From the NCBI GenBank assembly GCA_020439285.1, contig JAGQSZ010000009.1:1-33278 (forward strand): a stretch of DNA of 33,278 nucleotides, written 5' to 3'. Under the pieces are notes generated by a model. It did no database searches. It saw nothing but the letters and a program-made list of their open reading frames with translations, and was not told the DNA's origin. The position numbers and the translations under genes were made by a program. Each line of letters begins with the position of its first letter. Position 1 is the first letter of the stretch. Source of the DNA: Microthrixaceae bacterium. Lineage in GTDB: Bacteria > Actinomycetota > Acidimicrobiia > Acidimicrobiales > Microtrichaceae. Positions 1,480-27,904 of this stretch are shown piece after piece.

Positions 1480-1587
1480 GACGTATCTCCTTGTTTCAAC
1501 AACTACGTGAACGAGTCGGCCGGTCATTCGGGCGACTGTGAACAGATACGTGTCATGAATCGGGTCGGGTCTTACCGACCTCGTCGA

Positions 1588-1634
1588 ACTTTTGTGGAGT
1601 TTTGGTTGGTGGCCAACGCGAACTCCACAAAAGT
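1588..1634. repeat. Hairpin repeat unit 1 (14-bp perfect arms)
   Basis: ACTTTTGTGGAGTT at 1588-1601 is the exact reverse complement of AACTCCACAAAAGT at 1621-1634. The 19-base loop contains TTGG and CCAA, which can extend the pairing. There is no T-run after it and it lies between divergent genes, so it is not a simple terminator. It may be a REP-like mobile palindrome or a large operator. Confidence 0.85.
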
Positions 1635-1693
1635 CGCGCCGGGCCGACGGGCCGGAATACATGTCGACTGCCACGCCCCCGACTCCTCCCCGA

Positions 1694-1739
1694 ACTTTGT
1701 GGAGTTTTGGTTGGAGGGCAACGCGAACTCCACAAAAGT
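1694..1739. repeat. Hairpin repeat unit 2 (same orientation, one base shorter)
   Basis: The left arm ACTTTGTGGAGTT (1694-1706) is one T shorter than in unit 1; the right arm AACTCCACAAAAGT (1726-1739) is identical. The loop (TTGGTTGGAGGGCAACGCG) differs from unit 1 at few positions, and the flank GTCGC(A/G)CCGGG is shared. The two units are direct repeats 106 bases apart. Confidence 0.85.
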
Positions 1740-1914
1740 CGCACCGGGGTCGTGCCCGAGGCGGCGGCCGCGCCCGGGCCGCGCACAACCCGGCGAGGTA
1801 AGACCGGCGCCCCTGGGTGACACAAACCAGGTATGAGCGTCGCGACCCGAACGACAATCCTCGAGTCCGCAATCGATCCCCGTGCTATCGGCGGCTCGTG
1901 CATCTACAACATTC

Positions 1915-1940
1915 GGAACCCAAGGATTGATAGAAACGAG
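1915..1940 (+). promoter_or_regulatory. Possible ECF-type promoter (GGAAC-N17-CGAG)
   Basis: GGAAC at 1915-1919 and CGAG at 1937-1940 are 17 bases apart. GGAAC is the usual -35 of many ECF sigma factors, which often drive their own gene. If real, transcription would begin at about the GTG at 1944, supporting a short or leaderless sigma message. The -10 half is weak. Confidence 0.3.
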
Positions 1941-1943
1941 ACT

Positions 1944-2654
1944 GTGATTTCGTCGCTGGCATCAGAACCCGAGGAGGCCAACGGTCGTTCGCCACGAACA
2001 CTCGGGGATCGCCCAAACGATGGCGAATGGATTGCACGCCTGAAATCGACCGGGCCAGCACGTGATTCCGCTGTTGCTCATCTGCACGAGTTGTTGCTCA
2101 GAGCCACTCGCCATCAGGTGAGCCGGATGCCCGAGGCGATCCCGCTCGGAGCGGCTCTGCGCGATGAGATCATCCACTCCTCGGCTGACCACGCGACGCT
2201 GTCGGTGCTCGGCAAACTCAACGACTTCGAGGGGCGCAGCAAGTTCACCACTTGGGCCTACAAGTTCGGGATTCTGCGCGCCGGGGTCGAGGTTCGCCGC
2301 TCGGTGTGGCGAGATCGAGACGTGCGACTCGCCGACATCGCCGAGACCCGTGAGCACCACGCATCCTCACCAGAGGCCCAGGCCGAGGGCCGGGATCTGG
2401 CTTCGGCTGTGCAACAGGGGCTGAACGAAGCGCTCACCGATCACCAACGCAAGGTTGCGATCGCGTTGTTGATCCAGGAGATACCGATCGATGTGCTCGC
2501 CGATCACATGGGCACCACACGCAACGCTCTCTACAAGACTCTTCACGACGCGCGGAAGAAGCTGAGGGCCTACTTGATAGAACAGGGCTATCCGCAACCC
2601 GGCGTCCCCGGCACCGCAAGTACAACGACAACAACAACGAAGGAGGCGAACTGA
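1944..2654 (+). CDS. ECF-family RNA polymerase sigma factor
   Basis: The protein begins with the sigma region-2 pattern DGEWIARLKSTGPARDSAVAHLHELLL, followed by a core helix (FEGRSKFTTWAYKFGILRAG, where TTWAYK is typical of region 2.3/2.4). Its region 4 is a helix-turn-helix (LTDHQRKVAIALLIQEIPIDVLADHMGTTRNALYKTLHDARKKLR). It should direct RNA polymerase to a stress or envelope regulon under control of the next gene. I chose GTG 1944 because the GGAAC element lies just upstream; an in-frame ATG at 1833 would add 37 residues with no sigma similarity and no ribosome binding site. The C-terminal tail is a Thr run. Its TGA overlaps the ATG of the anti-sigma gene by one base, so the two are translationally coupled. 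Fold call is firm; the start is not. Confidence 0.88.
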   Translation: MISSLASEPEEANGRSPRTLGDRPNDGEWIARLKSTGPARDSAVAHLHELLLRATRHQVSRMPEAIPLGAALRDEIIHSSADHATLSVLGKLNDFEGRSKFTTWAYKFGILRAGVEVRRSVWRDRDVRLADIAETREHHASSPEAQAEGRDLASAVQQGLNEALTDHQRKVAIALLIQEIPIDVLADHMGTTRNALYKTLHDARKKLRAYLIEQGYPQPGVPGTASTTTTTTKEAN

Positions 2655-2947
2655 TGGCTGACGAGACCCAACTGACTCCAGAGGTGATTGAGCGCCTCAC
2701 GACCTTGAGCGACCCGTGGCTGTCATGTGACGAGTGCTTCGAACAACTCGACGTTCAAGTCGACGAAGTGGTCGGCGAGGCCGGGTCGTTGGATGAACCC
2801 TTCCGTGTCCACCTGCTCAGCTGCGGCGTCTGTCATGACGAGGCCCGCTCACTCGCCGAACTCATCGCTAGCGACTACGACTTGAGCGAAGCACAGGCGA
2901 TCGAACGACTCGACCACGCGATCTCCCACATCGCTCCCGGGGCCTAA
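2654..2947 (+). CDS. Zinc-type anti-sigma factor, soluble
   Basis: A 97-residue acidic protein coupled to the ECF sigma gene through a TGATG overlap. It carries HLLSCGVC, which fits the H-x3-C-x2-C zinc motif of ZAS anti-sigma factors, and an earlier CDECFEQLDVQVDEVV segment matching the N-terminal part of that domain. No transmembrane helix is present, so it would act in the cytoplasm, possibly with a redox-sensitive zinc site. Inferred role: it binds and silences the upstream sigma factor until a signal arrives. The gene pair alone makes this the best reading. Confidence 0.82.
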   Translation: MADETQLTPEVIERLTTLSDPWLSCDECFEQLDVQVDEVVGEAGSLDEPFRVHLLSCGVCHDEARSLAELIASDYDLSEAQAIERLDHAISHIAPGA

Positions 2948-2993
2948 CCAGTCGCCCGAGCCGCTTCGGCAGGCAACACGGCGAGCTGCGTTC

Positions 2994-2999
2994 TAGGTT
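2994..2999 (+). promoter_or_regulatory. -10 box (TAGGTT) of a leaderless message
   Basis: TAGGTT ends 6 bases before the GTG at 3006 and no Shine-Dalgarno sequence is present. This fits leaderless transcription, as seen at several other genes in this window. Confidence 0.55.
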
Positions 3000-3005
3000 C
3001 CTGTT

Positions 3006-4028
3006 GTGCATGTTTCGATGACGGTTCCGACCGAGGACCTGTCCGAAGTCCGTTCGATCTATCCACGACTCGAAGAACTCGGTTATGACCGTGCGTTCTC
3101 CTTCGAAGCGAAGCATGATCCGTTCATTCCCCTCGCCGTTGCGGGAGAACACACATCGCGGATCGAGCTCGGGACCGCGATTGCGATCGCTTTCGCTCGC
3201 ACACCGATGACTCTGGCGAACGTCGCTTGGGATCTGCAGACGGTGACCCGAGGGCGATTCACACTCGGCTTGGGGTCTCAGATCCGACCGCATGTCGAAC
3301 AGCGATTCTCGATGCCGTGGGCCCAGCCGGTTGAGCGAATGAATGAGCTGGTGCGAGGCGTCCGGGCCATCTGGGACGCTTGGCAGAACGGCACTCAGCT
3401 CGACTTCGAAGGCGATTTCTATACCCACACGAGAATGATTCCGGCGTTCAATCCGGGGCCCAACGAGTTCGGTCCCCCACGGATCCTTACCGCTGGGTTC
3501 GGACCGAAAATGACCGCTGTTGCTGGCGAGGTTGCTGACGGGTTTCTGGTTCATCCAGTGAACACTCGGCGCTCGCTTCTGGAGCAAACCCTGCCGGCCT
3601 TGCGCAGCGGTGCTGCCAGATCCGGCAGGTCGCTCGAGGACCTGGAGATCGTTTGCGTGACGATCATTGTCACGGGTCGCGACGAAGCGGAGTTCGACCG
3701 CAGTCGCGAGGCCGTGCGTGAACAGCTCGCCTTTTACGGAACGACTCCGGCCTACCAACCCGTGTTTGAACTGCACGGCTATGGGGACCTTCACCCCGAA
3801 CTCAAGGCACTCGCTCGACAGGGGCGCTGGTCCGAGATGAGCAATCTGATCGATGACCATCTGATAGAGACGGTGGCAGTGGTCGGGGAGATCCACGAGA
3901 TCGCAGGCAAGGTTCGCGCCCGGCTCGAAGGCATCTCCGACTCGGTGAGCCTGGTGAACAACCGAGCCCCTGACCCCGGACACCTCGCCGAAGTGGTCGC
4001 TGCACTCAAATCTGATCAACACCCCTGA
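3006..4028 (+). CDS. F420-type LLM-class oxidoreductase
   Basis: A 340-residue luciferase-like TIM barrel, the usual length for the F420-dependent LLM group. Visible marks are the N-terminal strand HVSMTVPTEDL, LEELGYDRAFSFEAKHDPFIPL, TSRIELGTAIAIAFARTPMTLANVAWDLQTVTRGRFTLGLGSQIRPHVEQRF (the 'RF.LGlG.q...' motif), and PRILTAGFGPKMTAVAGEVADGFLVHP. It most resembles the subgroup annotated as TIGR03617. Members transfer hydride between F420H2 (or flavin) and a small organic substrate; the substrate is unknown here. The GTG start is set by the TAGGTT box just upstream. It stands alone on the plus strand, 58 bases after the anti-sigma gene. Confidence 0.9.
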   Translation: MHVSMTVPTEDLSEVRSIYPRLEELGYDRAFSFEAKHDPFIPLAVAGEHTSRIELGTAIAIAFARTPMTLANVAWDLQTVTRGRFTLGLGSQIRPHVEQRFSMPWAQPVERMNELVRGVRAIWDAWQNGTQLDFEGDFYTHTRMIPAFNPGPNEFGPPRILTAGFGPKMTAVAGEVADGFLVHPVNTRRSLLEQTLPALRSGAARSGRSLEDLEIVCVTIIVTGRDEAEFDRSREAVREQLAFYGTTPAYQPVFELHGYGDLHPELKALARQGRWSEMSNLIDDHLIETVAVVGEIHEIAGKVRARLEGISDSVSLVNNRAPDPGHLAEVVAALKSDQHP

Positions 4029-4138: not shown

Positions 4139-4699
4139 ATGATCCTGTTGATCATCGGGCCATCGGGTAGTGGCAAGTCCAGCGTGGTCAGCGCGCTGAG
4201 TGGATCGGGATTGCTCCAACCACATCCAACCTGGACAGACAGGGCACCCAGGCAGGGCGAGTTGGACGGGATAGAGCACCGGTTCACTACTGCCGAGCGG
4301 TTCAACGAGTTGACCGACTCCGGGTATTTCATCGGAACCACGGAGCGTTTCTCGCACCACTACGGACTCGCCCGTTGGCCAGACCGACGAACCGGCGTCC
4401 TGACCGTCGTGCTCCGGGCGGATCTGGTCGACCTGTTCGCCGCTGCAGCAGCGCCGGAACCCGTGCTCGTCTATCAGATCACTGCGAGCCGACAACAGGT
4501 CATCGAGCGGCTACACGAGCGCGATCTACCGGACGACGAGTTCCGCTCGCGGTTGGATGAGCACGACAGCGAACTCGCGCTTGGTACATCAATTGCAGAC
4601 AGAACCTTTGTGAACGACACGGACCTGGCCACCACCATCGCAACGGTCAAAGCCGCGGTCGAGGCCGACTTTCAGGTCGACGAAAAGCAGGTGGCGTGA
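4139..4699 (+). CDS. Guanylate-kinase/PhnN-like P-loop protein (paralogue 1)
   Basis: ATG 4139 follows AAAGGG by 8 bases, giving 186 residues. Residues 7-14 are a canonical Walker A loop (GPSGSGKS). TDRAPRQGELDGIEHRF matches the GMP-binding 'TTR.PR.GE.dG..Y.F' motif of guanylate kinases. GYFIGT then matches 'geFlE', and IADRTFVND matches the C-terminal 'D..i.N' motif. The GMP-contacting parts are only partly kept (YGLARWP in place of the YGT segment) and no arginine-rich lid is clear, so a substrate other than GMP is possible; the ribose bisphosphokinase PhnN has this fold. It is not likely to be the housekeeping Gmk. It is translationally coupled to the next small membrane gene. A related gene lies at 10004-10633. 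Confidence 0.8.
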   Translation: MILLIIGPSGSGKSSVVSALSGSGLLQPHPTWTDRAPRQGELDGIEHRFTTAERFNELTDSGYFIGTTERFSHHYGLARWPDRRTGVLTVVLRADLVDLFAAAAAPEPVLVYQITASRQQVIERLHERDLPDDEFRSRLDEHDSELALGTSIADRTFVNDTDLATTIATVKAAVEADFQVDEKQVA

Positions 4700-4926
4700 T
4701 GGAACCACAAGGTGTCCACCAAAGCAACAGCCAAGTCGCCCAACCCGACCCGGCCGATGAGCTTGAGCAGGCCACGAAGCGTCCGTGGTGGAGCAAGAGC
4801 CCGTTGATCACCGTTGCGATTGTGCTCATCGGTGTTGCGCTGGCCGCCGGTCTGCTGGTGCTCATCGTCTTCATCGTGTTGATGGCCTGGATCATGTCCA
4901 CCGGCGGACTGTTCCCCAACAAGTAG
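4699..4926 (+). CDS. Small single-pass membrane protein
   Basis: A 75-residue protein whose ATG (4699) overlaps the TGA of the upstream kinase-like gene; a GTG one codon earlier is also possible. The first 40 residues are polar and charged. A single hydrophobic helix follows (about 41-68, from LITVAIVLIGVAL to VLMAWIM), with a short tail ending in FPNK. The coupling suggests it may work with the kinase-like protein, perhaps as a membrane partner. No family was recognised. Confidence 0.7.
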   Translation: MEPQGVHQSNSQVAQPDPADELEQATKRPWWSKSPLITVAIVLIGVALAAGLLVLIVFIVLMAWIMSTGGLFPNK

Positions 4927-4939
4927 GTAGAGCGATCTC

Positions 4940-6055
4940 ATGAATTCACTCCTGAACGACAAACACATTCGAGTCGAACGCGGACCGGTCACGGTCCAAT
5001 CGATCAAGTCCAAGGCAGCCGCAGCGCTAGGGCTCATCCGCCCACCGTTTGCTCTGTTGGTGTTGATGTTCGCCCAACTCGGAGCAAGCCAGAGCGGCAA
5101 TCGACTCCGGCTCACCACCACAGTCACCCTCGTCACCGCGGTAGCGGGTTGGATTCTCGCCGTGGTGTCCATGAACGAACTCGGCGACGAGGACGTCGAC
5201 TCACACAACATCGACCGACAGAATGCTCGCCCGCTTGTCACCGGTGCACTTTCGCGGATCCAGATGTGGACCATCGTCGGCACATGCTCGGCGGCGGCCA
5301 CAGTCGCTGCGTCGTTGCTGGGTCGCGCGGCCTTGGTGACTGTGCTCGGCGGATTGGTACTCGGCGCCGCCTATTCGCTCCCACCGTTGCGACTCAGTCG
5401 ACGGGGTCCAGCTACATCGCTGCTGTTGCCTCTGGGATATGTGACCGTGCCGTTCATGATGGGTGCCTTCGCTGCATCGAGGAACGGAATTCCTGCACCC
5501 ACACCGGGTACGACAGCCGCAGGAACCTGGATGCTCATCACCGGGCTCTATGTCAGCTTCCTCGGACGACTCCTCCTCAAGGATTTCCGAGATCTGGAGG
5601 GAGACATGCTCTATGGCAAGCGAACCTTCCTGGTTCGCTATGGACGGATCACAACGATCAGCGTCAGTTCCGCACTATGGGTCATAGGCGGAATCCCGAT
5701 CGTCGCTGCTGCTCGGTCCGCCGAACTAGCGGTGTCCTACGGCTTGGGTGCGGCTGTCGCTCTGTGGTTGTTGAACCGTCTGGCGGGCAGCGCAGATGAC
5801 CACACCGACGACGTGCTCATCGCTGCAGTCGCGGCGGTTGGCAGATCGGTACTGCTCGCGACGATCGCCCTCTATGAGACTCGACTCGTGTCGGCTCCGG
5901 CATGGGCTGCCATCACCCTCGTCGGGGGATCCGTGGCCCTCGGGTTGATCGGCACTCAGCGCTACATCGGCGAACTCGACCTTGCAGCAGTCACGCCGCT
6001 CAGGGGAGATGCGCGTCGTGACCACGTGCGCTACTCACTGCAGGACAACTCGTAG
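4940..6055 (+). CDS. UbiA-family prenyltransferase
   Basis: A 371-residue multi-pass membrane protein with both aspartate-rich motifs of the UbiA superfamily: N79-E-L-G-D83-E-D-V-D87 (the NDxxDxxxD-type site) and K-D215-F-R-D218-L-E-G-D222, which bind Mg-diphosphate. About nine hydrophobic helices are visible. The family moves an isoprenoid chain onto an aromatic or sugar acceptor, for quinones, decaprenylphosphoryl sugars or chlorophyll-type lipids. The acceptor cannot be told here and no quinone-pathway genes are adjacent. The gene starts 13 bases after the small membrane protein, so it probably shares its transcript. Confidence 0.88.
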   Translation: MNSLLNDKHIRVERGPVTVQSIKSKAAAALGLIRPPFALLVLMFAQLGASQSGNRLRLTTTVTLVTAVAGWILAVVSMNELGDEDVDSHNIDRQNARPLVTGALSRIQMWTIVGTCSAAATVAASLLGRAALVTVLGGLVLGAAYSLPPLRLSRRGPATSLLLPLGYVTVPFMMGAFAASRNGIPAPTPGTTAAGTWMLITGLYVSFLGRLLLKDFRDLEGDMLYGKRTFLVRYGRITTISVSSALWVIGGIPIVAAARSAELAVSYGLGAAVALWLLNRLAGSADDHTDDVLIAAVAAVGRSVLLATIALYETRLVSAPAWAAITLVGGSVALGLIGTQRYIGELDLAAVTPLRGDARRDHVRYSLQDNS

Positions 6056-22848: not shown

Positions 22849-23718
22849 CTAGCCAATCAGCTTGTCGACCCGTTTGAGGACATCGGTCGCGTCGAGTCGC
22901 TCACACCAGCCCGCCAGGTCATCGGTGGGGCCGCTCCAATGCCAATCGTCGACTTCGCCGACGTCGATGTCGGTTGCCAGAGTCGCTAGTTGTTTGAACA
23001 ACAAAGCGTTCTGGTACTGCTCGGCGAGGGTAGCCGCCAGTTTCTTTGCGCCTCTGACACCGTCCACGTCCCATTGACCTGGTTCGTGTGGAATCTCCTC
23101 CAGATGCCCATAGCGCCGCAGGACCGCGGCAGCGGTCTTTGCTCCCCAGCCGGGCAGCCCCGGGAACCCGTCCGCCGTGTCCCCGACGAGAGCCAACCAA
23201 TCGGGGATCGATGCTGGCTCCACACCGTACTTTTCGAGGATCTCTCCTGGCCCACGGATCTCATCGGCTCGTCGATCGAATTGGACGACCTTGCCACCGA
23301 CGCATTGCGCCAGGTCCTTGTCCGGGGTGCAGATCAGGACTCGCTCGACCCGGTCATCAGCCGCTGCCTTCACAGCCGCCGCGCCGAGCGCGTCATCGGC
23401 CTCGTATTCGACCATCGGCCACACCGTCACACCGAGTGCTTCAACCACGTCCTCGAGCAGAGGGAACTGCGAGAACAGGTCCGGGTCGATTCCGTCGCCG
23501 GTCTTGTACCCGGCCCACAGATCGTTGCGGAACGACTGAATGACGTGATCGGTCGCGACACCCAAATGCGTCGCTCCACCTTCGAGCATCGAGACGAGGG
23601 ACCGGAGCACTCCCCTAGCTGCCCCCACCGACTCACCCGACGCGTTCACGTGCCGACCGCTCGGCGAGTAGTAGTAGCGGAACAGCTCATAGGTGCCGTC
23701 GACGAGGTGGACCTGCAT
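22849..23718 (-). CDS. 5'-3' exonuclease (Pol I N-domain/FEN-like)
   Basis: A 289-residue stand-alone exonuclease with the acidic metal cluster of the family: VHLVDGTYELFRYYY at the start, EYEADDALGAAA, CTPDKDLAQCV, and LVGDTADGFPGLPGWGAKTAAAVL (the helix-hairpin-helix with preceding GD..D). It should remove 5' flaps or RNA ends. Placed directly upstream of the PrimPol gene and facing ligC, it completes a small gap-processing set: nuclease, polymerase, ligase. An 11-bp palindrome (CCTGTCACAGG, 23727-23737) lies 8 bases upstream of the start. Confidence 0.93.
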   Translation of the reverse strand: MQVHLVDGTYELFRYYYSPSGRHVNASGESVGAARGVLRSLVSMLEGGATHLGVATDHVIQSFRNDLWAGYKTGDGIDPDLFSQFPLLEDVVEALGVTVWPMVEYEADDALGAAAVKAAADDRVERVLICTPDKDLAQCVGGKVVQFDRRADEIRGPGEILEKYGVEPASIPDWLALVGDTADGFPGLPGWGAKTAAAVLRRYGHLEEIPHEPGQWDVDGVRGAKKLAATLAEQYQNALLFKQLATLATDIDVGEVDDWHWSGPTDDLAGWCERLDATDVLKRVDKLIG

Positions 23719-23791
23719 ACCGCGAGCCTGTCACAGGTTTACCGGCTCGTTCGGCCGGGGCGCTGCGTTCGAGAGAGTGTTGTCCGTAGGG

Positions 23792-24031
23792 TCAGGCAGA
23801 CACCGAGCGGTTGAGCGTCGCACGGATACGCTCGACCTCCGCCAAGGCGGTGACCTCATCGACTGATTCGTATCCGGGATCCGTTTGCACCCAGACCCAA
23901 AGATCCGGCGACTCGGTCCACTCACCGATCTCGACATCGAAGTACTCGAAGCTCTCGGGATTGTCATGATCGCCGCGGCCCACGCTGACTACGTCATCGT
24001 CAGGGAAGTCCGTAATCAACCAGTACCTCAT
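23792..24031 (-). CDS. Small acidic protein downstream of RelA/SpoT-like gene, possible antitoxin
   Basis: A 79-residue protein with about 19 Asp/Glu, 5 Arg and no Lys; no family was recognised. It opens MRYWLITDFPDDDVVSVGRG, has a Trp-rich middle (PDLWVWVQTD) and a short C-terminal helix. It begins 9 bases after the stop of the RelA/SpoT-like gene. A TAGAAT box begins in that stop codon and ends 6 bases before this ATG, so it may also be made from its own leaderless message. Small acidic partners next to toxic nucleotidyltransferases are often antitoxins; that role is inferred from position and charge only. Confidence 0.72.
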   Translation of the reverse strand: MRYWLITDFPDDDVVSVGRGDHDNPESFEYFDVEIGEWTESPDLWVWVQTDPGYESVDEVTALAEVERIRATLNRSVSA

Positions 24032-24037
24032 GAGATT

Positions 24038-24043
24038 ATTCTA
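24038..24043 (-). promoter_or_regulatory. -10 box (TAGAAT) inside the operon, overlapping a stop codon
   Basis: TAGAAT on the minus strand starts with the TAG stop of the RelA/SpoT-like gene and ends 6 bases before the ATG at 24031. It is one base from TATAAT and has the leaderless spacing used elsewhere in the window. Confidence 0.5.
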
Positions 24044-24610
24044 CCCGTGTCGCTCAGGGATGGGAACCGTGGCGAAGGTCGCGTCGGATTCATCCTTGAG
24101 CAGATGCCTCACGGCCTTGGGCGTTGAGCGGTCCCTAATCTGCTCGTAAAAGTAATGGGATGATTCCGCGGCTTGCAGGCTTTCTGACGTATGGACCTGC
24201 ACCTCAAATAGTTGTCCGCCCGATGACCTGACGGTCACATTGCGCCCCTTGTATCCAGGCAGGTCCCATAGATTGAGATCCTTCACCACTTCATAGCCCC
24301 TGACGCGAAGTAGAGCTAGGAGTTCATCGCCACCAGACCAATAGGTTCGGTGGTCGATCACTGCTGTGTACCGGATCACGTCATTCACCCGCTCAGGCCG
24401 CCGCCGAAAACCCCGATTAGCTGCGACTTTTCGGGTGAGCGAGCCTTCGGTCTTTAGAACCGATCCTGCTCGTGCTCTGGTGGCGCCTGAGGCAGTGATC
24501 GCAGCTTCGACGTCCAAGGTGATCCCTCGTTCTGCTTGTTTCGCGGCCGCGAGTAGCTGTCGTGCCGTGTCACGAGGGTCGTCGGTACCAGCGACCCCAG
24601 CACGCTTCAT
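24041..24610 (-). CDS. RelA/SpoT-like nucleotidyltransferase-fold protein
   Basis: ATG 24610 follows AAGGTGG by 4 bases, giving 189 residues (a GTG at 24640 is the long alternative). The C-terminal two-thirds match the RelA/SpoT synthetase-like outline: RVNDVIRYTAVID (D77, as in the 'D..g.Ri' strand), then LRVRGYEVV, then PGYKGRNVTV (as in 'GYqslH'), then QLFEVQVHTSESLQAAESSHYFYEQIR (E136, as in 'vEiQiRT', then a conserved E..H helix). The N-terminal 60 residues are helical. Both acidic residues expected for catalysis are present, so it may make an alarmone or transfer pyrophosphate to another target, as small toxic synthetases (toxSAS) do. No hydrolase domain is present. It is sandwiched between an ATPase and an acidic small protein. 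Confidence 0.68.
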   Translation of the reverse strand: MKRAGVAGTDDPRDTARQLLAAAKQAERGITLDVEAAITASGATRARAGSVLKTEGSLTRKVAANRGFRRRPERVNDVIRYTAVIDHRTYWSGGDELLALLRVRGYEVVKDLNLWDLPGYKGRNVTVRSSGGQLFEVQVHTSESLQAAESSHYFYEQIRDRSTPKAVRHLLKDESDATFATVPIPERHG

Positions 24611-24641
24611 GAAACCACCTTCACTGCGACGACGTCCCACG

Positions 24642-25988
24642 TCACTGGCCTTGACGTGTTCGACCCATCACCAGTTGCGTTGCTGTTTCAAACTCGGTCC
24701 ACGACACAATAGGAACACCGCCATAGCGACCTTCCAGGTACCGCTTCTCGATTGCCTCGTTCTTGCGCGGCTTCATGTCGGCAAGCGAGTACAGATTCGT
24801 TGCCCCATCGTTGGTCTTCTCGGTGAGCCAGATTTGGTCACGCCCGAGTGAGTGGCTATCCGCGTCTAGAAGGGTGACGTCATGTGAGTTGAAGATCAGC
24901 TGTGCCCGCCTCGGGTTGGTCGACTGATCCTGGAACAACCGAACCAGCTGTCGCACCAACGCAGGGTGCAAGCTTGTGTCGAGCTCATCAGCGAGCAGGA
25001 CGACACCTCTGTCGAGTGCATCAAGAACCGGTCCAACAAGTCCGAACCAAACGAGAGTGCCAAGGCTCTCCTCTTCGGGAGGGAACGGCAGGTCCCCCTC
25101 TGGACTGTGATGCGTGAGTCTGACCAATGATCCAAGCTCAATATTGAAATCGGATTCGGAGTCATCGGTCTCGCCCGCGAGATTCCGGAGAGCTTTGGCG
25201 ACGCGCTCCTTCGCCTTCGGATCCACTTCGTGACGGATAGCACCAGTGATGCCCAGGTCAGCGGCTCGAAGCAGCGCCATAACCCCAGCTCTGCGTTCAG
25301 GGTCCTCCATCATCTGAGCCGTGAACGCCTGCCTAGGGTTCTGAGTGTCAACTTCAGCGAGAAGGAGATGACGGTGGAACCATTCAAAAAGTGGGAGCAG
25401 GGCCCGATGATTGGACGAAGCCGCTGTAGACAGGAACAGCGCGTTTGGACGCAACATGTCGAATGCAGCACGGCTGCTGCGCCGAGCATCGCTGCCGAAG
25501 TCAACTTCGTCGCCGTTACGGTCGAAGAGGAGCTTCGCCCGACCTTTGGGGAAGTAGAAGGCCCATTCTGAAAGGACCCTGTCATCATCAAAGGTAACCC
25601 CGTACTCGTAGCGGACACCGCGAACGATCAGGTCCACCTCGAAGCGTGTCGGTCGCTCCGAGGAGTCATCTAGACGAAACGGATGCCGTTCGATTCCGCC
25701 AGTCGGAACGCCAAGCCGAAAGGATGTCAGGACCAGACGACGCATGTCATTCATGACTCGAAGCAGATTGGACTTCCCAGAAGCATTTGCTCCGAGCACT
25801 CCCGCTACAGGAAGGACATCAAGGGTCGATCCGCCCTCGCGCCAAGGTACCTGCCGAGGGACTCCAGGCTCAGACATCGCAGTTGGAAGTAGCGAAAGCT
25901 CAATGTCATCACGGAACGATCGAGCGTTCTCAGCACGAAAGGCCAACAGGACCGATGGAGCTGGTTGACCCTCACAAATATTGCTCAC
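24642..25988 (-). CDS. AAA15/OLD-like ATPase (COG1106-type)
   Basis: A 448-residue ABC-type ATPase with the SMC/OLD N-terminal strand (LAFRAENARSFRDDIELSL), Walker A GANASGKS (66-73), EEESLGTLVWFGLV near 305 in place of an ABC signature, Walker B LLADELD (331-337) with TSLHPAL, and the switch FNSHD (366-370). It matches the RloA/AbiL-type ATPases found in defence loci, whose usual partner is an RloB/TOPRIM-like nuclease. Here the next gene is the RelA/SpoT-like protein instead. GTG 25988 was chosen because GATAAT lies 6 bases upstream (leaderless); a TTG at 26015 would add 9 residues. Its stop lies 31 bases before the next start. It is the first gene of the island operon. Confidence 0.85.
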   Translation of the reverse strand: MSNICEGQPAPSVLLAFRAENARSFRDDIELSLLPTAMSEPGVPRQVPWREGGSTLDVLPVAGVLGANASGKSNLLRVMNDMRRLVLTSFRLGVPTGGIERHPFRLDDSSERPTRFEVDLIVRGVRYEYGVTFDDDRVLSEWAFYFPKGRAKLLFDRNGDEVDFGSDARRSSRAAFDMLRPNALFLSTAASSNHRALLPLFEWFHRHLLLAEVDTQNPRQAFTAQMMEDPERRAGVMALLRAADLGITGAIRHEVDPKAKERVAKALRNLAGETDDSESDFNIELGSLVRLTHHSPEGDLPFPPEEESLGTLVWFGLVGPVLDALDRGVVLLADELDTSLHPALVRQLVRLFQDQSTNPRRAQLIFNSHDVTLLDADSHSLGRDQIWLTEKTNDGATNLYSLADMKPRKNEAIEKRYLEGRYGGVPIVSWTEFETATQLVMGRTRQGQ

Positions 25989-25994
25989 AAGTAA

Positions 25995-26000
25995 ATTATC
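25995..26000 (-). promoter_or_regulatory. -10 box (GATAAT) of the ATPase operon, in AT-rich DNA
   Basis: GATAAT differs from TATAAT at one base and lies 6 bases before the GTG at 25988. The surrounding 25970-26045 stretch is much richer in A and T than the rest of the window. Confidence 0.5.
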
Positions 26001-26119
26001 GCAACTTTCTTGCAAAATATGTATTCAAATTGCGTTTTGTGATCCAATCAAGATGTGGCAGTCCTCGTTCAGCCGCCCGAGACACCATCGGTTGAACAAC
26101 TCCACATCTGGGTAGCAGT

Positions 26120-27904
26120 GTGGAGATGGCTGTGACCGAACCGAGCGAACCGACCGAACCTCGCGACACAAAGCAACCCTCCGATCCGGTTCGGCCGACT
26201 CTGACGCTCGGCGAGGATCGCGTCGATCTAGAGACTTGGGCCGGGTCGATTCCACAGACCGGCGGGATCGGTCCGCGGATCCGTGTGGGTCGCAATCGCT
26301 GGTTCGCCCTGTTGTGGCTACTGCCGCTCGGGTTCGTGGTCGTGATCGCGTCGGTCGCCGCTGCAAAGGGTCTGCGGAACATCCCGGCGGTAGAGAGCTT
26401 CATCACCAATCATCCCGGAACGCTGATCACTGCGAGAGCGCGAGCAAACCCGGGCTTCCCGTGGTGGTTGAACGCGCAACATTTTCTGAATCTGTTCCTG
26501 ATGACGTTCATGATCCGGTCAGGTTGGCAGATCCTGGCTGATCACCCGCGGCTCTACTGGACCCGGCACAGCACACCGGGCAAGGAATGGTTTCGCATAC
26601 AAAAGCCTGTTCCGGAGAATCCCCTGTGGACAGCCAAGGAGGACTCTGTCCGACTACCCCGCCATGTAGGTCTGCCGGGCACCCGCCACACCATCGGTCT
26701 CGCACGTTGGTGGCACCTGGGTGTCGACGTCATCTGGTTGGCCAACGGGATCTTGTTCTACGTCTTGTTGTTCGCGACGGGTCAATGGCAACACTTGGTG
26801 CCAACCTCATGGGAGGTCTTCCCGAACGCGTTGTCGACAGCGATCCAGTACGCGTCGCTCGATTGGCCGACCGAACACGGTTGGGTCGCCTACAACGGAC
26901 TGCAGTTGATCGCCTACTTCGTCACCGTGTTCATCGCAGCACCGCTGGCCCTGTTGAGCGGTCTCGGAATGTCACCCGCGCTGTCGACTCGTTTCAAGAG
27001 GATCAGCAAGGTGCTCAGCATCCAGGTGGCCCGCTCGCTCCACTTCTTGGTCATGGCCTGGTTCGTGTTCTTCATCGTCATCCACGTGACCATGGTGTTC
27101 ACCACGGGCATGCTCGTGAACCTCAACCACATGTTCGCCGCACGCAATTCCAACTCGTGGCTCGGGTTCTCTGTCTTTGCTATCGCAATGGCTTTTGTTG
27201 CGATCACATGGCTCTCGGCATCTCCGTTCACGATTCGCCACCCTCGGTTAGTCCAACGAACCGGCCGGCGGATCATCGGCCCGGTCGAGCACCTCTTCGA
27301 GCACCTCGACTCCGCTCCCGGCGAGTACAGCGAGGCCGACATCTCCCCGTACTTCTGGCACAACGGCAGATATCCGGACTCAGCCGAATACCAACATCTC
27401 GCCGAGGGCAACTTCGAGGACTACCGCTTGGCGATCGGGGGACTCGTGGACTCTCCGGTGGAACTGAGCCTCGCTGACCTGCATGCACTTCCCCACCACG
27501 AACAGATCACCCAGCACTTCTGCATCCAAGGATGGTCCGGTGTCGCAAAGTGGGGTGGCGTGTCGATGCAGACGATTCTCGATCTGGTCCACCCTTCGAG
27601 CGAGGCCAAGTGGGTGGTGTTCTACTCATTCGGTGAAGGCGCCGACGGAGGCCCCTACTACGACGCCCACCCGATCAACGAGATGAGTTATCAGCTGACG
27701 ATGCTCGCCTATGACATGAACGACGAGCCTCTGACCTTTGGCCATGGCGCTCCGCTACGGCTGCGCAACGAGGTAGAACTCGGTTTCAAGCAGGTCAAGT
27801 GGATTCGCAGCATCGAGTTCATCGCAGAGTTCAGCGAGATCGGCAGCGGGTTCGGGGGTTACAACGAGGACCACGAGTTCTTCGGCTACCGCCAGGCGAT
27901 CTGA
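26120..27904 (+). CDS. Membrane cytochrome b-like and molybdopterin oxidoreductase fusion
   Basis: 594 residues in two parts. Residues about 60-380 hold five to six transmembrane helices with His residues placed as in the cytochrome b561/formate-dehydrogenase gamma group (LNAQHFLNLFLMTFM, RWWHLGVDVIW, ARSLHFLVMAWFVFFIVIHVTMV). Residues about 420-594 form a sulfite-oxidase-type Mo-cofactor domain with the Mo-binding cysteine C468 (QHFCIQGWSGVAKWGG) and PLRLRNEVELGFKQVKWI. This looks like a one-chain version of the MsrP-MsrQ type pair: haem membrane anchor plus Mo catalytic unit. The substrate is unknown. No Tat signal is seen, so the side of the membrane on which the Mo domain folds is an open point. 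The start may be GTG 26120 or ATG 26126. Confidence 0.88.
   Translation: MEMAVTEPSEPTEPRDTKQPSDPVRPTLTLGEDRVDLETWAGSIPQTGGIGPRIRVGRNRWFALLWLLPLGFVVVIASVAAAKGLRNIPAVESFITNHPGTLITARARANPGFPWWLNAQHFLNLFLMTFMIRSGWQILADHPRLYWTRHSTPGKEWFRIQKPVPENPLWTAKEDSVRLPRHVGLPGTRHTIGLARWWHLGVDVIWLANGILFYVLLFATGQWQHLVPTSWEVFPNALSTAIQYASLDWPTEHGWVAYNGLQLIAYFVTVFIAAPLALLSGLGMSPALSTRFKRISKVLSIQVARSLHFLVMAWFVFFIVIHVTMVFTTGMLVNLNHMFAARNSNSWLGFSVFAIAMAFVAITWLSASPFTIRHPRLVQRTGRRIIGPVEHLFEHLDSAPGEYSEADISPYFWHNGRYPDSAEYQHLAEGNFEDYRLAIGGLVDSPVELSLADLHALPHHEQITQHFCIQGWSGVAKWGGVSMQTILDLVHPSSEAKWVVFYSFGEGADGGPYYDAHPINEMSYQLTMLAYDMNDEPLTFGHGAPLRLRNEVELGFKQVKWIRSIEFIAEFSEIGSGFGGYNEDHEFFGYRQAI

What the first reader, a model, noticed from the sequence alone, without database searches (positions are those of the whole stretch)
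23792..25988. Three-gene island: AAA15/OLD-like ATPase, RelA/SpoT-like protein and small acidic protein
The ATPase is of the kind (RloA/AbiL, COG1106) that normally pairs with a TOPRIM/RloB nuclease in phage-defence loci. Here the second gene has the outline of a RelA/SpoT synthetase-like fold (D77, GYKG, FEVQVHT with E136) and no hydrolase domain, and the third is a 79-residue protein with about 19 acidic and 5 basic residues. RelA/SpoT-fold toxins (toxSAS, CapRel) are an established defence theme. The three genes run in one direction with gaps of 31 and 9 bases. An ATPase-regulated alarmone-type toxin with an acidic antitoxin would be a new combination to me, though I cannot search for it.
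Basis: partly seen in the sequence, partly recalled or inferred. Interest (0 to 1): 0.78.

Follow-up and report, generated by a model that had tools for sequence, protein, structure and literature searches.

The report
RloA ATPase with alarmone toxin–antitoxin pair
An actinobacterial genome carries a small acquired island in which an ATPase that normally works with a nuclease in phage defence sits instead in front of a predicted ATP-depleting alarmone toxin and its small inhibitor, a combination found in no other genome searched here.

Summary
The middle gene (24041-24610, -) is a small alarmone synthetase. Its AlphaFold2 model (pLDDT 93) matches the exported Streptomyces synthetase SaEAS (8vx3, Z 20.6). 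All six SaEAS active-site residues are kept, and it has the RYT / GxN / xH motifs of Apk2-type (p)ppApp synthetases. The small acidic gene (23792-24031) belongs to the IapK-like proteins that follow such toxins: an independent HMM ranks it first of 505 window ORFs (E 0.0012, next 1.6). So toxin and inhibitor are a known kind of pair. The ATPase (24642-25988) is RloA/AbiLi, in a clade (support 100/99) whose other seven members have RloB (six) or an HNH gene (one); here the RloB slot holds the toxin pair. ATPase and toxin share an atypical GC3 (0.60, against 0.72±0.03 for 23 window genes), and the site is empty in the one same-genus relative held. The ATPase is not decaying, and no RloB was found in this genome (76% complete). 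The pairing is a single case: none of 87 toxin loci has such an ATPase within 6 kb, and none of about 75 ATPase loci has the toxin. Functional coupling is plausible but unproven. Verdict: new variant of a known kind.

The parts
24642..25988 (-). RloA/AbiLi-type AAA/ABC ATPase, 448 aa (alternative TTG start 26015), with Walker A GANASGKS, Walker B LLADELD and H-loop NSHD intact
   Evidence: AAA_21 7.4e-35; PADLOC AbiLi 9.5e-90; 38 of 39 residues invariant in RloB-paired kin are kept; in a 100/99-supported clade of RloA proteins
24041..24610 (-). Stand-alone small alarmone synthetase (SYNTH) toxin, 189 aa, Apk2/SaEAS-like; predicted ATP 3'-pyrophosphokinase
   Evidence: phmmer to 8vx3 1.9e-19 and Tas1 0.026; profile to 8vx3 1.1e-61 and Tas1 3.3e-5; AlphaFold2 pLDDT 93.3; Foldseek 7.3e-15 and VIA Z 20.6 to 8vx3; D77, R80, K110, N124, E136, Q138 match the SaEAS residues D121, R124, K154, N169, E182, Q184
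23792..24031 (-). Small acidic IapK-like immunity/antitoxin protein, 79 aa
   Evidence: HMM of 19 small proteins found next to SYNTH genes (window left out) ranks it first of 505 window ORFs, E 0.0012, next 1.6; same position and size as IapK after phage Apk2 genes
23719..26119 (.). Acquired island between the 5'-3' exonuclease gene (22849-23718) and the molybdopterin gene (26120-27904)
   Evidence: GC3 of ATPase 0.597 and toxin 0.600, against 0.722 (sd 0.033) for 23 window genes; in same-genus genome G001 the exonuclease (79%) and MFS (80%) genes are direct neighbours

Best explanation
The island is a defence-type operon built by partner exchange. An RloA/AbiLi ATPase lost its usual RloB (TOPRIM-like) partner, and an Apk2-like toxin-immunity cassette took its place. 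Shown here: the identity and intactness of the three parts, the shared foreign composition of ATPase and toxin, and the empty site in a relative. Inferred: in the resting cell the small protein blocks the synthetase active site, as IapK does for Apk2, and the ATPase holds or licenses this complex. When a phage or other invader is sensed through the ATPase, the synthetase is freed and transfers pyrophosphate from ATP to the 3' OH of ATP/ADP (and perhaps GTP/GDP). That drains the ATP pool and stops growth or kills the cell before the phage multiplies. The toxin-inhibitor part of this statement is about 0.9 likely; the link to the ATPase is the uncertain part.
For: Toxin: fold, active site and Apk2-type motifs (motif meaning from PMC12226406). 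Inhibitor: IapK-like family and position. ATPase: in an RloA clade with 100/99 support; at sites conserved in its three nearest kin it differs in 12.9%, against 9.4-18.4% for those kin treated the same way, so it is not decaying. Partner exchange is a habit of these ATPases: RloB in most, HEPN in L231 and L233, HNH in L201; PMC10440598 describes AAA ATPases as a hub antitoxin with RloB, HNH, HEPN and RNase-like partners. ATPase and toxin share GC3 0.60, against 0.72 around them, lie co-directional 31 bases apart, and sit at a site empty in G001. No RloB was found elsewhere in the genome.
Against: One instance only. None of the 87 SYNTH loci from genome and viral contigs has an RloA-type ATPase within 6 kb, and none of about 75 RloA-type loci has SYNTH next to it. 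The toxin brings its own inhibitor, so no ATPase is needed to restrain it. The small gene's GC3 (0.74) fits the host and not the other two, though it has only 79 codons. The genome is 76% complete, so an RloB elsewhere cannot be excluded. No transcription, interaction or phage data exist.
Confidence: 0.45

Rival explanations
1. Two neighbours without a joint function: an orphan RloA ATPase whose RloB was lost, and an independent Apk2-like toxin-antitoxin pair that landed behind it in an insertion site. The pair works as an ordinary toxin-antitoxin module and the ATPase is idle or acts alone.
For: The pairing was seen once in roughly 160 loci. Stand-alone SYNTH + small protein pairs without an ATPase exist (M. 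fortunisiensis L056; degraded copy L224). RloA-type ATPases without RloB occur (Selenomonas, Streptomyces, Klebsiella plasmids). RloAB can decay (G064: both genes broken).
Against: The ATPase is intact and as constrained as RloB-paired kin. ATPase and toxin share the same foreign GC3. The toxin occupies exactly the RloB slot, with no RloB remnant in the 31-base gap.
Confidence: 0.4
2. The SYNTH gene is an exported or interbacterial toxin (as in MuF, type VII or Sec-exported relatives) with its immunity gene, and not a defence effector.
For: Most relatives are long proteins with MuF or other trafficking parts, or carry a signal peptide (PMC12691689).
Against: The window protein is 189 aa with only about 12 residues before the domain and no signal peptide or trafficking domain, and no secretion genes lie next to it among the window genes looked at.
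Confidence: 0.08
3. The SYNTH enzyme is a tRNA-modifying toxSAS (like CapRel, FaRel2, PhRel) and not a nucleotide alarmone synthetase.
For: Same superfamily fold; CapRel Z 12.8, FaRel2 Z 7.9.
Against: By sequence the nearest solved structures are SaEAS and Tas1, both nucleotide pyrophosphokinases, and the RYT / GxN / xH motifs are those of Apk2.
Confidence: 0.07

Closest known systems
Apk2 MuF toxin with IapK immunity protein (pneumococcal and Pasteurellaceae prophages; PMC12226406)
   Same: SYNTH domain with RYT, GxN and xH motifs, followed directly by a small protein of about 70-80 aa
   Different: No MuF or other trafficking domain (189 aa stand-alone); no Aph1 hydrolase gene seen next to it; an RloA ATPase lies in front
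SaEAS exported alarmone synthetase (8vx3; PMC12691689)
   Same: Closest solved structure, with all reported ATP-site residues conserved
   Different: SaEAS is Sec-exported and has no immunity gene; the window protein has no signal peptide and has a partner gene
RloAB / AbiL (AbiLi-AbiLii)
   Same: The ATPase is a full RloA/AbiLi protein, 51-58% identical to RloB-paired ones
   Different: RloB/AbiLii is missing; a toxSAS and inhibitor sit in its slot
PARIS (AriA-AriB)
   Same: Family-related AAA_21 ATPase in front of an effector gene; AriA holds AriB inactive until a phage trigger binds (PMC12409363)
   Different: The effector is a synthetase, not a TOPRIM nuclease, and has an extra dedicated inhibitor
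NetFlax AAA (D29) antitoxin hub systems, such as AarT:AAA (PMC10440598)
   Same: One ATPase family combined with many toxin types
   Different: The text of that paper names RloB, HNH, HEPN and RNase-like partners; a toxSAS partner is not mentioned there (its datasets were not read)
CapRel and FaRel2 toxSAS defence
   Same: RelA/SpoT-fold toxin restrained by an antitoxin
   Different: Those modify tRNA and have other antitoxin folds; no RloA-type ATPase is described

Membership tests
RelA/SpoT-fold small alarmone synthetase (SYNTH) | SYNTH fold without hydrolase domain | tested here: met
   AlphaFold2 pLDDT 93.3; Foldseek 8vx3 7.3e-15, RelQ/RelP about 1e-5; VIA Z 20.6 and 13.8. Pfam PF04607 alone is only 0.16, below cut-off.
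RelA/SpoT-fold small alarmone synthetase (SYNTH) | Catalytic and ATP-site residues present | tested here: met
   D77, R80, K110, N124, E136, Q138 align with SaEAS D121, R124, K154, N169, E182, Q184 (alignment; residues from PMC12691689); D77, R80, N124, E136, Q138 invariant in 40 aligned sequences.
Apk2-type (p)ppApp synthetase | Syn motifs RYT, GxN and xH | tested here: met
   R80-Y81-T82, G122-R-N124, V139-H140 (motif description in PMC12226406).
Apk2-type (p)ppApp synthetase | N-terminal MuF domain | tested here: not met
   The protein is 189 aa, with the SYNTH domain from about residue 12. It is therefore Apk2-like in domain and not filed as an Apk2 MuF toxin.
Apk2-type (p)ppApp synthetase | Makes (p)ppApp from ATP/ADP | not testable with these tools
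   Needs an enzyme assay. SaEAS, which shares the motifs, makes both (p)ppApp and (p)ppGpp (PMC12691689).
IapK-like immunity protein | Small protein encoded directly after the SYNTH toxin, same sequence family | tested here: met
   HMM E 0.0012, best of 505 window ORFs. The score is modest (14.2 bits); identity to single members is low, and a pairwise test with the M. fortunisiensis protein alone was not significant.
IapK-like immunity protein | Binds and blocks the toxin active site | tested here: inconclusive
   AlphaFold2 of toxin and small protein joined by reading the TAG between them gave pLDDT 27-56 for the small part, so no interface can be read.
RloA/AbiLi ATPase | AAA_21/RloA sequence family with intact ATPase motifs | tested here: met
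RloAB / AbiL system | RloB (AbiLii) partner gene | tested here: not met
   No RloB next to the ATPase or elsewhere in the genome (PF13707; genome 76% complete).
toxSAS type II toxin-antitoxin module | Toxin inhibits growth and is neutralised by the adjacent gene | not testable with these tools
   Needs expression tests.

The most novel reading that the evidence does not exclude
A new kind of abortive-infection system in which an RloA/AbiLi ATPase serves as phage sensor for an ATP-consuming alarmone toxin that is also held by its own IapK-like inhibitor: a three-part, doubly locked defence that drains ATP instead of cutting nucleic acid.
Probability: 0.4. Interest if true: 0.75.

Novelty: new variant of a known kind. 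Interest (0 to 1): 0.5.

Why it matters
If the genes work together, the effectors commanded by AbiL/RloA ATPases would extend from nucleases to an enzyme that empties the ATP pool, and (p)ppApp toxins, so far known from secretion, prophage heads and toxin-antitoxin pairs, would become phage-triggered defence effectors. It also makes a general idea testable: that the ATPase is a reusable sensor into which different toxins can be plugged. Even if not linked, the locus shows a stand-alone Apk2-like toxin-immunity pair at the RloB position of an RloA gene.

Tried and rejected
Recurrence of the triad: single-sequence scans of genome and viral contigs found nothing. A nine-sequence alignment was too diverse to scan with; a four-sequence one gave 62 genome and 25 viral SYNTH loci, none with the ATPase. 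A 716-aa concatenated query in plasmids gave no record covering 80%. SYNTH searches of 99 relatives and 396 phylum, 247 class and 387 order genomes gave few hits and no second triad. Small protein: no match in Pfam, PADLOC or NCBIfam at E 1 or in PHROGs at 0.01, no plasmid match, no relevant PDB match; pairwise similarity to the M. fortunisiensis partner was not significant, which led to the HMM approach. Joint structure of toxin and inhibitor: the fusion by stop read-through was only a modelling device and failed for the small part. A mixed alignment of toxins and small proteins was misaligned by MAFFT and dropped. XopAD hits were taken only as evidence for the domain; that effector was not fetched. 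No promoter or terminator signal above chance inside the operon. Literature: no paper in the held library that pairs AbiLi/RloA with an alarmone synthetase; most subscription papers and all preprints are missing there, so absence is weak.

Full report
What is there. On the - strand, between a 5'-3' exonuclease gene (22849-23718) and a molybdopterin oxidoreductase gene (26120-27904, +), lie three genes reading in one direction: an ATPase (24642-25988), a 189-aa protein (24041-24610) and a 79-aa acidic protein (23792-24031). The window is a contig of a draft genome (519 contigs, 76% complete).

The middle gene is an alarmone synthetase. Pfam RelA_SpoT is only a weak hit (E 0.16), but phmmer finds the solved exported synthetase of Streptomyces albidoflavus (8vx3) at 1.9e-19 and the type VI effector Tas1/Apk1 at 0.026. 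A nine-sequence profile gives 1.1e-61 and 3.3e-5. The AlphaFold2 model (40-row alignment) has pLDDT 93.3 and pTM 0.88. Foldseek and VIA-align give 8vx3 (7.3e-15; Z 20.6), then RelQ, RelP, CapRel and Tas1 (Z 12-14). The SaEAS residues D121, R124, K154, N169, E182 and Q184, named in PMC12691689, correspond to D77, R80, K110, N124, E136 and Q138 in the alignment. The motifs RYT, GxN and xH, which PMC12226406 describes for Apk2-type (p)ppApp synthetases, are all present. I therefore predict pyrophosphate transfer to adenosine nucleotides, possibly also guanosine ones, as SaEAS does both. This step is inference.

The small gene is the cognate inhibitor type. Across the SYNTH loci a small acidic protein, mostly 69-98 aa, follows the toxin within -4 to +23 bases in most phage and many actinobacterial cases, while Sec-exported relatives lack it. 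In pneumococcal, Mannheimia and Pasteurella phages a small gene (69-72 aa by its coordinates) stands at this position directly after apk2; PMC12226406 names the gene after apk2 iapK and shows that IapK occludes the toxin active site. An HMM of 19 such proteins, built without the window, ranks the window protein first of 505 window ORFs (E 0.0012; next 1.6). The score is modest, so I call it IapK-like. A joint model of toxin and inhibitor, made by reading through the TAG between the two in-frame genes, had no confident small part.

The ATPase is RloA/AbiLi (PADLOC AbiLi 9.5e-90). Nine relatives at 50% identity or more were examined: G290, Nonomuraea, G488, G705, G565, G506 and viral contig L225 have RloB, G064 has a broken RloB, and G665 has an HNH gene instead. 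In a maximum-likelihood tree the window ATPase falls in a clade of eight with 100/99 support. Thus RloB was most likely the ancestral partner and was replaced here. At alignment columns identical in the three nearest relatives the window ATPase differs in 12.9%; the same measure for those relatives is 9.4-18.4%, so it is not decaying. Partner exchange is seen elsewhere in the family: HEPN proteins in L231 and L233, HNH in L201. PMC10440598 reports AAA ATPases as a hub antitoxin with RloB, HNH, HEPN and RNase-like toxins.

The island came from outside. GC3 is 0.597 for the ATPase and 0.600 for the toxin, against 0.722 (sd 0.033, minimum 0.668) for 23 other window genes; the small gene has 0.74. 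In the only same-genus genome held (G001) the exonuclease and MFS genes are direct neighbours with a gap of under 200 bases. There the molybdopterin gene lies on another contig, so the empty site may reflect more than one event. No other of the 98 relatives has the toxin or the small gene.

Is it one system? For: position in the RloB slot, shared composition, intact ATPase, no RloB found elsewhere, and known partner exchange. Against: it is a single case. Among 87 SYNTH loci none has the ATPase within 6 kb; among about 75 RloA-type loci (31 viral, the rest from genomes and plasmids) none has SYNTH. The toxin also has its own inhibitor. I put coupling at 0.45 and mere neighbourhood at 0.4.

Likely mechanism, if coupled. 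In PARIS the related ATPase AriA holds the effector AriB until a phage protein binds (PMC12409363). AbiLii is toxic in one tested case, though AbiLi did not neutralise it there (PMC3985639), while RloB-type toxins were neutralised by their AAA partner in PMC10440598. By analogy the RloA here would sense infection and free the synthetase, which drains ATP. The small protein would be a second safety lock. None of this has been tested.

Judgement. The parts are known kinds; the combination is new to me and to the searched collections and papers. That makes it a new variant of a known kind, of moderate interest, with a clear route to proof or refutation.

Noticed in passing
L201 (G665), 512-1303 and 1501-3111: A close RloA relative (54%) is followed by an HNH/zinc-ribbon protein instead of RloB: another partner exchange in the same clade.
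   Followed up: partly
L231 4273-4974 and L233 4250-4978: RloA-type ATPases on viral contigs are followed by HEPN (RiboL-PSP) proteins instead of RloB.
   Followed up: partly
L224 (G916), 1238-2081: A stand-alone SYNTH gene split over two frames, followed by an IapK-like sequence, in the same order as the window: apparently a degraded toxin-inhibitor pair without ATPase.
   Followed up: no
L038 (G064), 4488-6042: RloA split into two ORFs and RloB cut to 77 aa: an apparently decaying RloAB locus in the same order.
   Followed up: no
L036 4923-7175 (same locus as L056): In Mycobacterium fortunisiensis a stand-alone SYNTH and a 98-aa protein are followed about 0.75 kb on by an HD-domain protein, resembling the Apk2-IapK-Aph1 order.
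   Followed up: partly
window 26120-27904: A molybdopterin oxidoreductase fused to a cytochrome b561-like part lies between the island and the MFS gene; in same-genus G001 it is on another contig.
   Followed up: partly
window 24029-24043; L085; L098: The toxin stop codon and the start of the small gene are in frame with 9 bases between; the same spacing occurs in L085 and L098.
   Followed up: no
L047, L051, L052: Rhodococcus and Curtobacterium plasmids carry HD-domain gene - SYNTH - about 180-aa protein operons, resembling toxSAS with an alarmone hydrolase.
   Followed up: no
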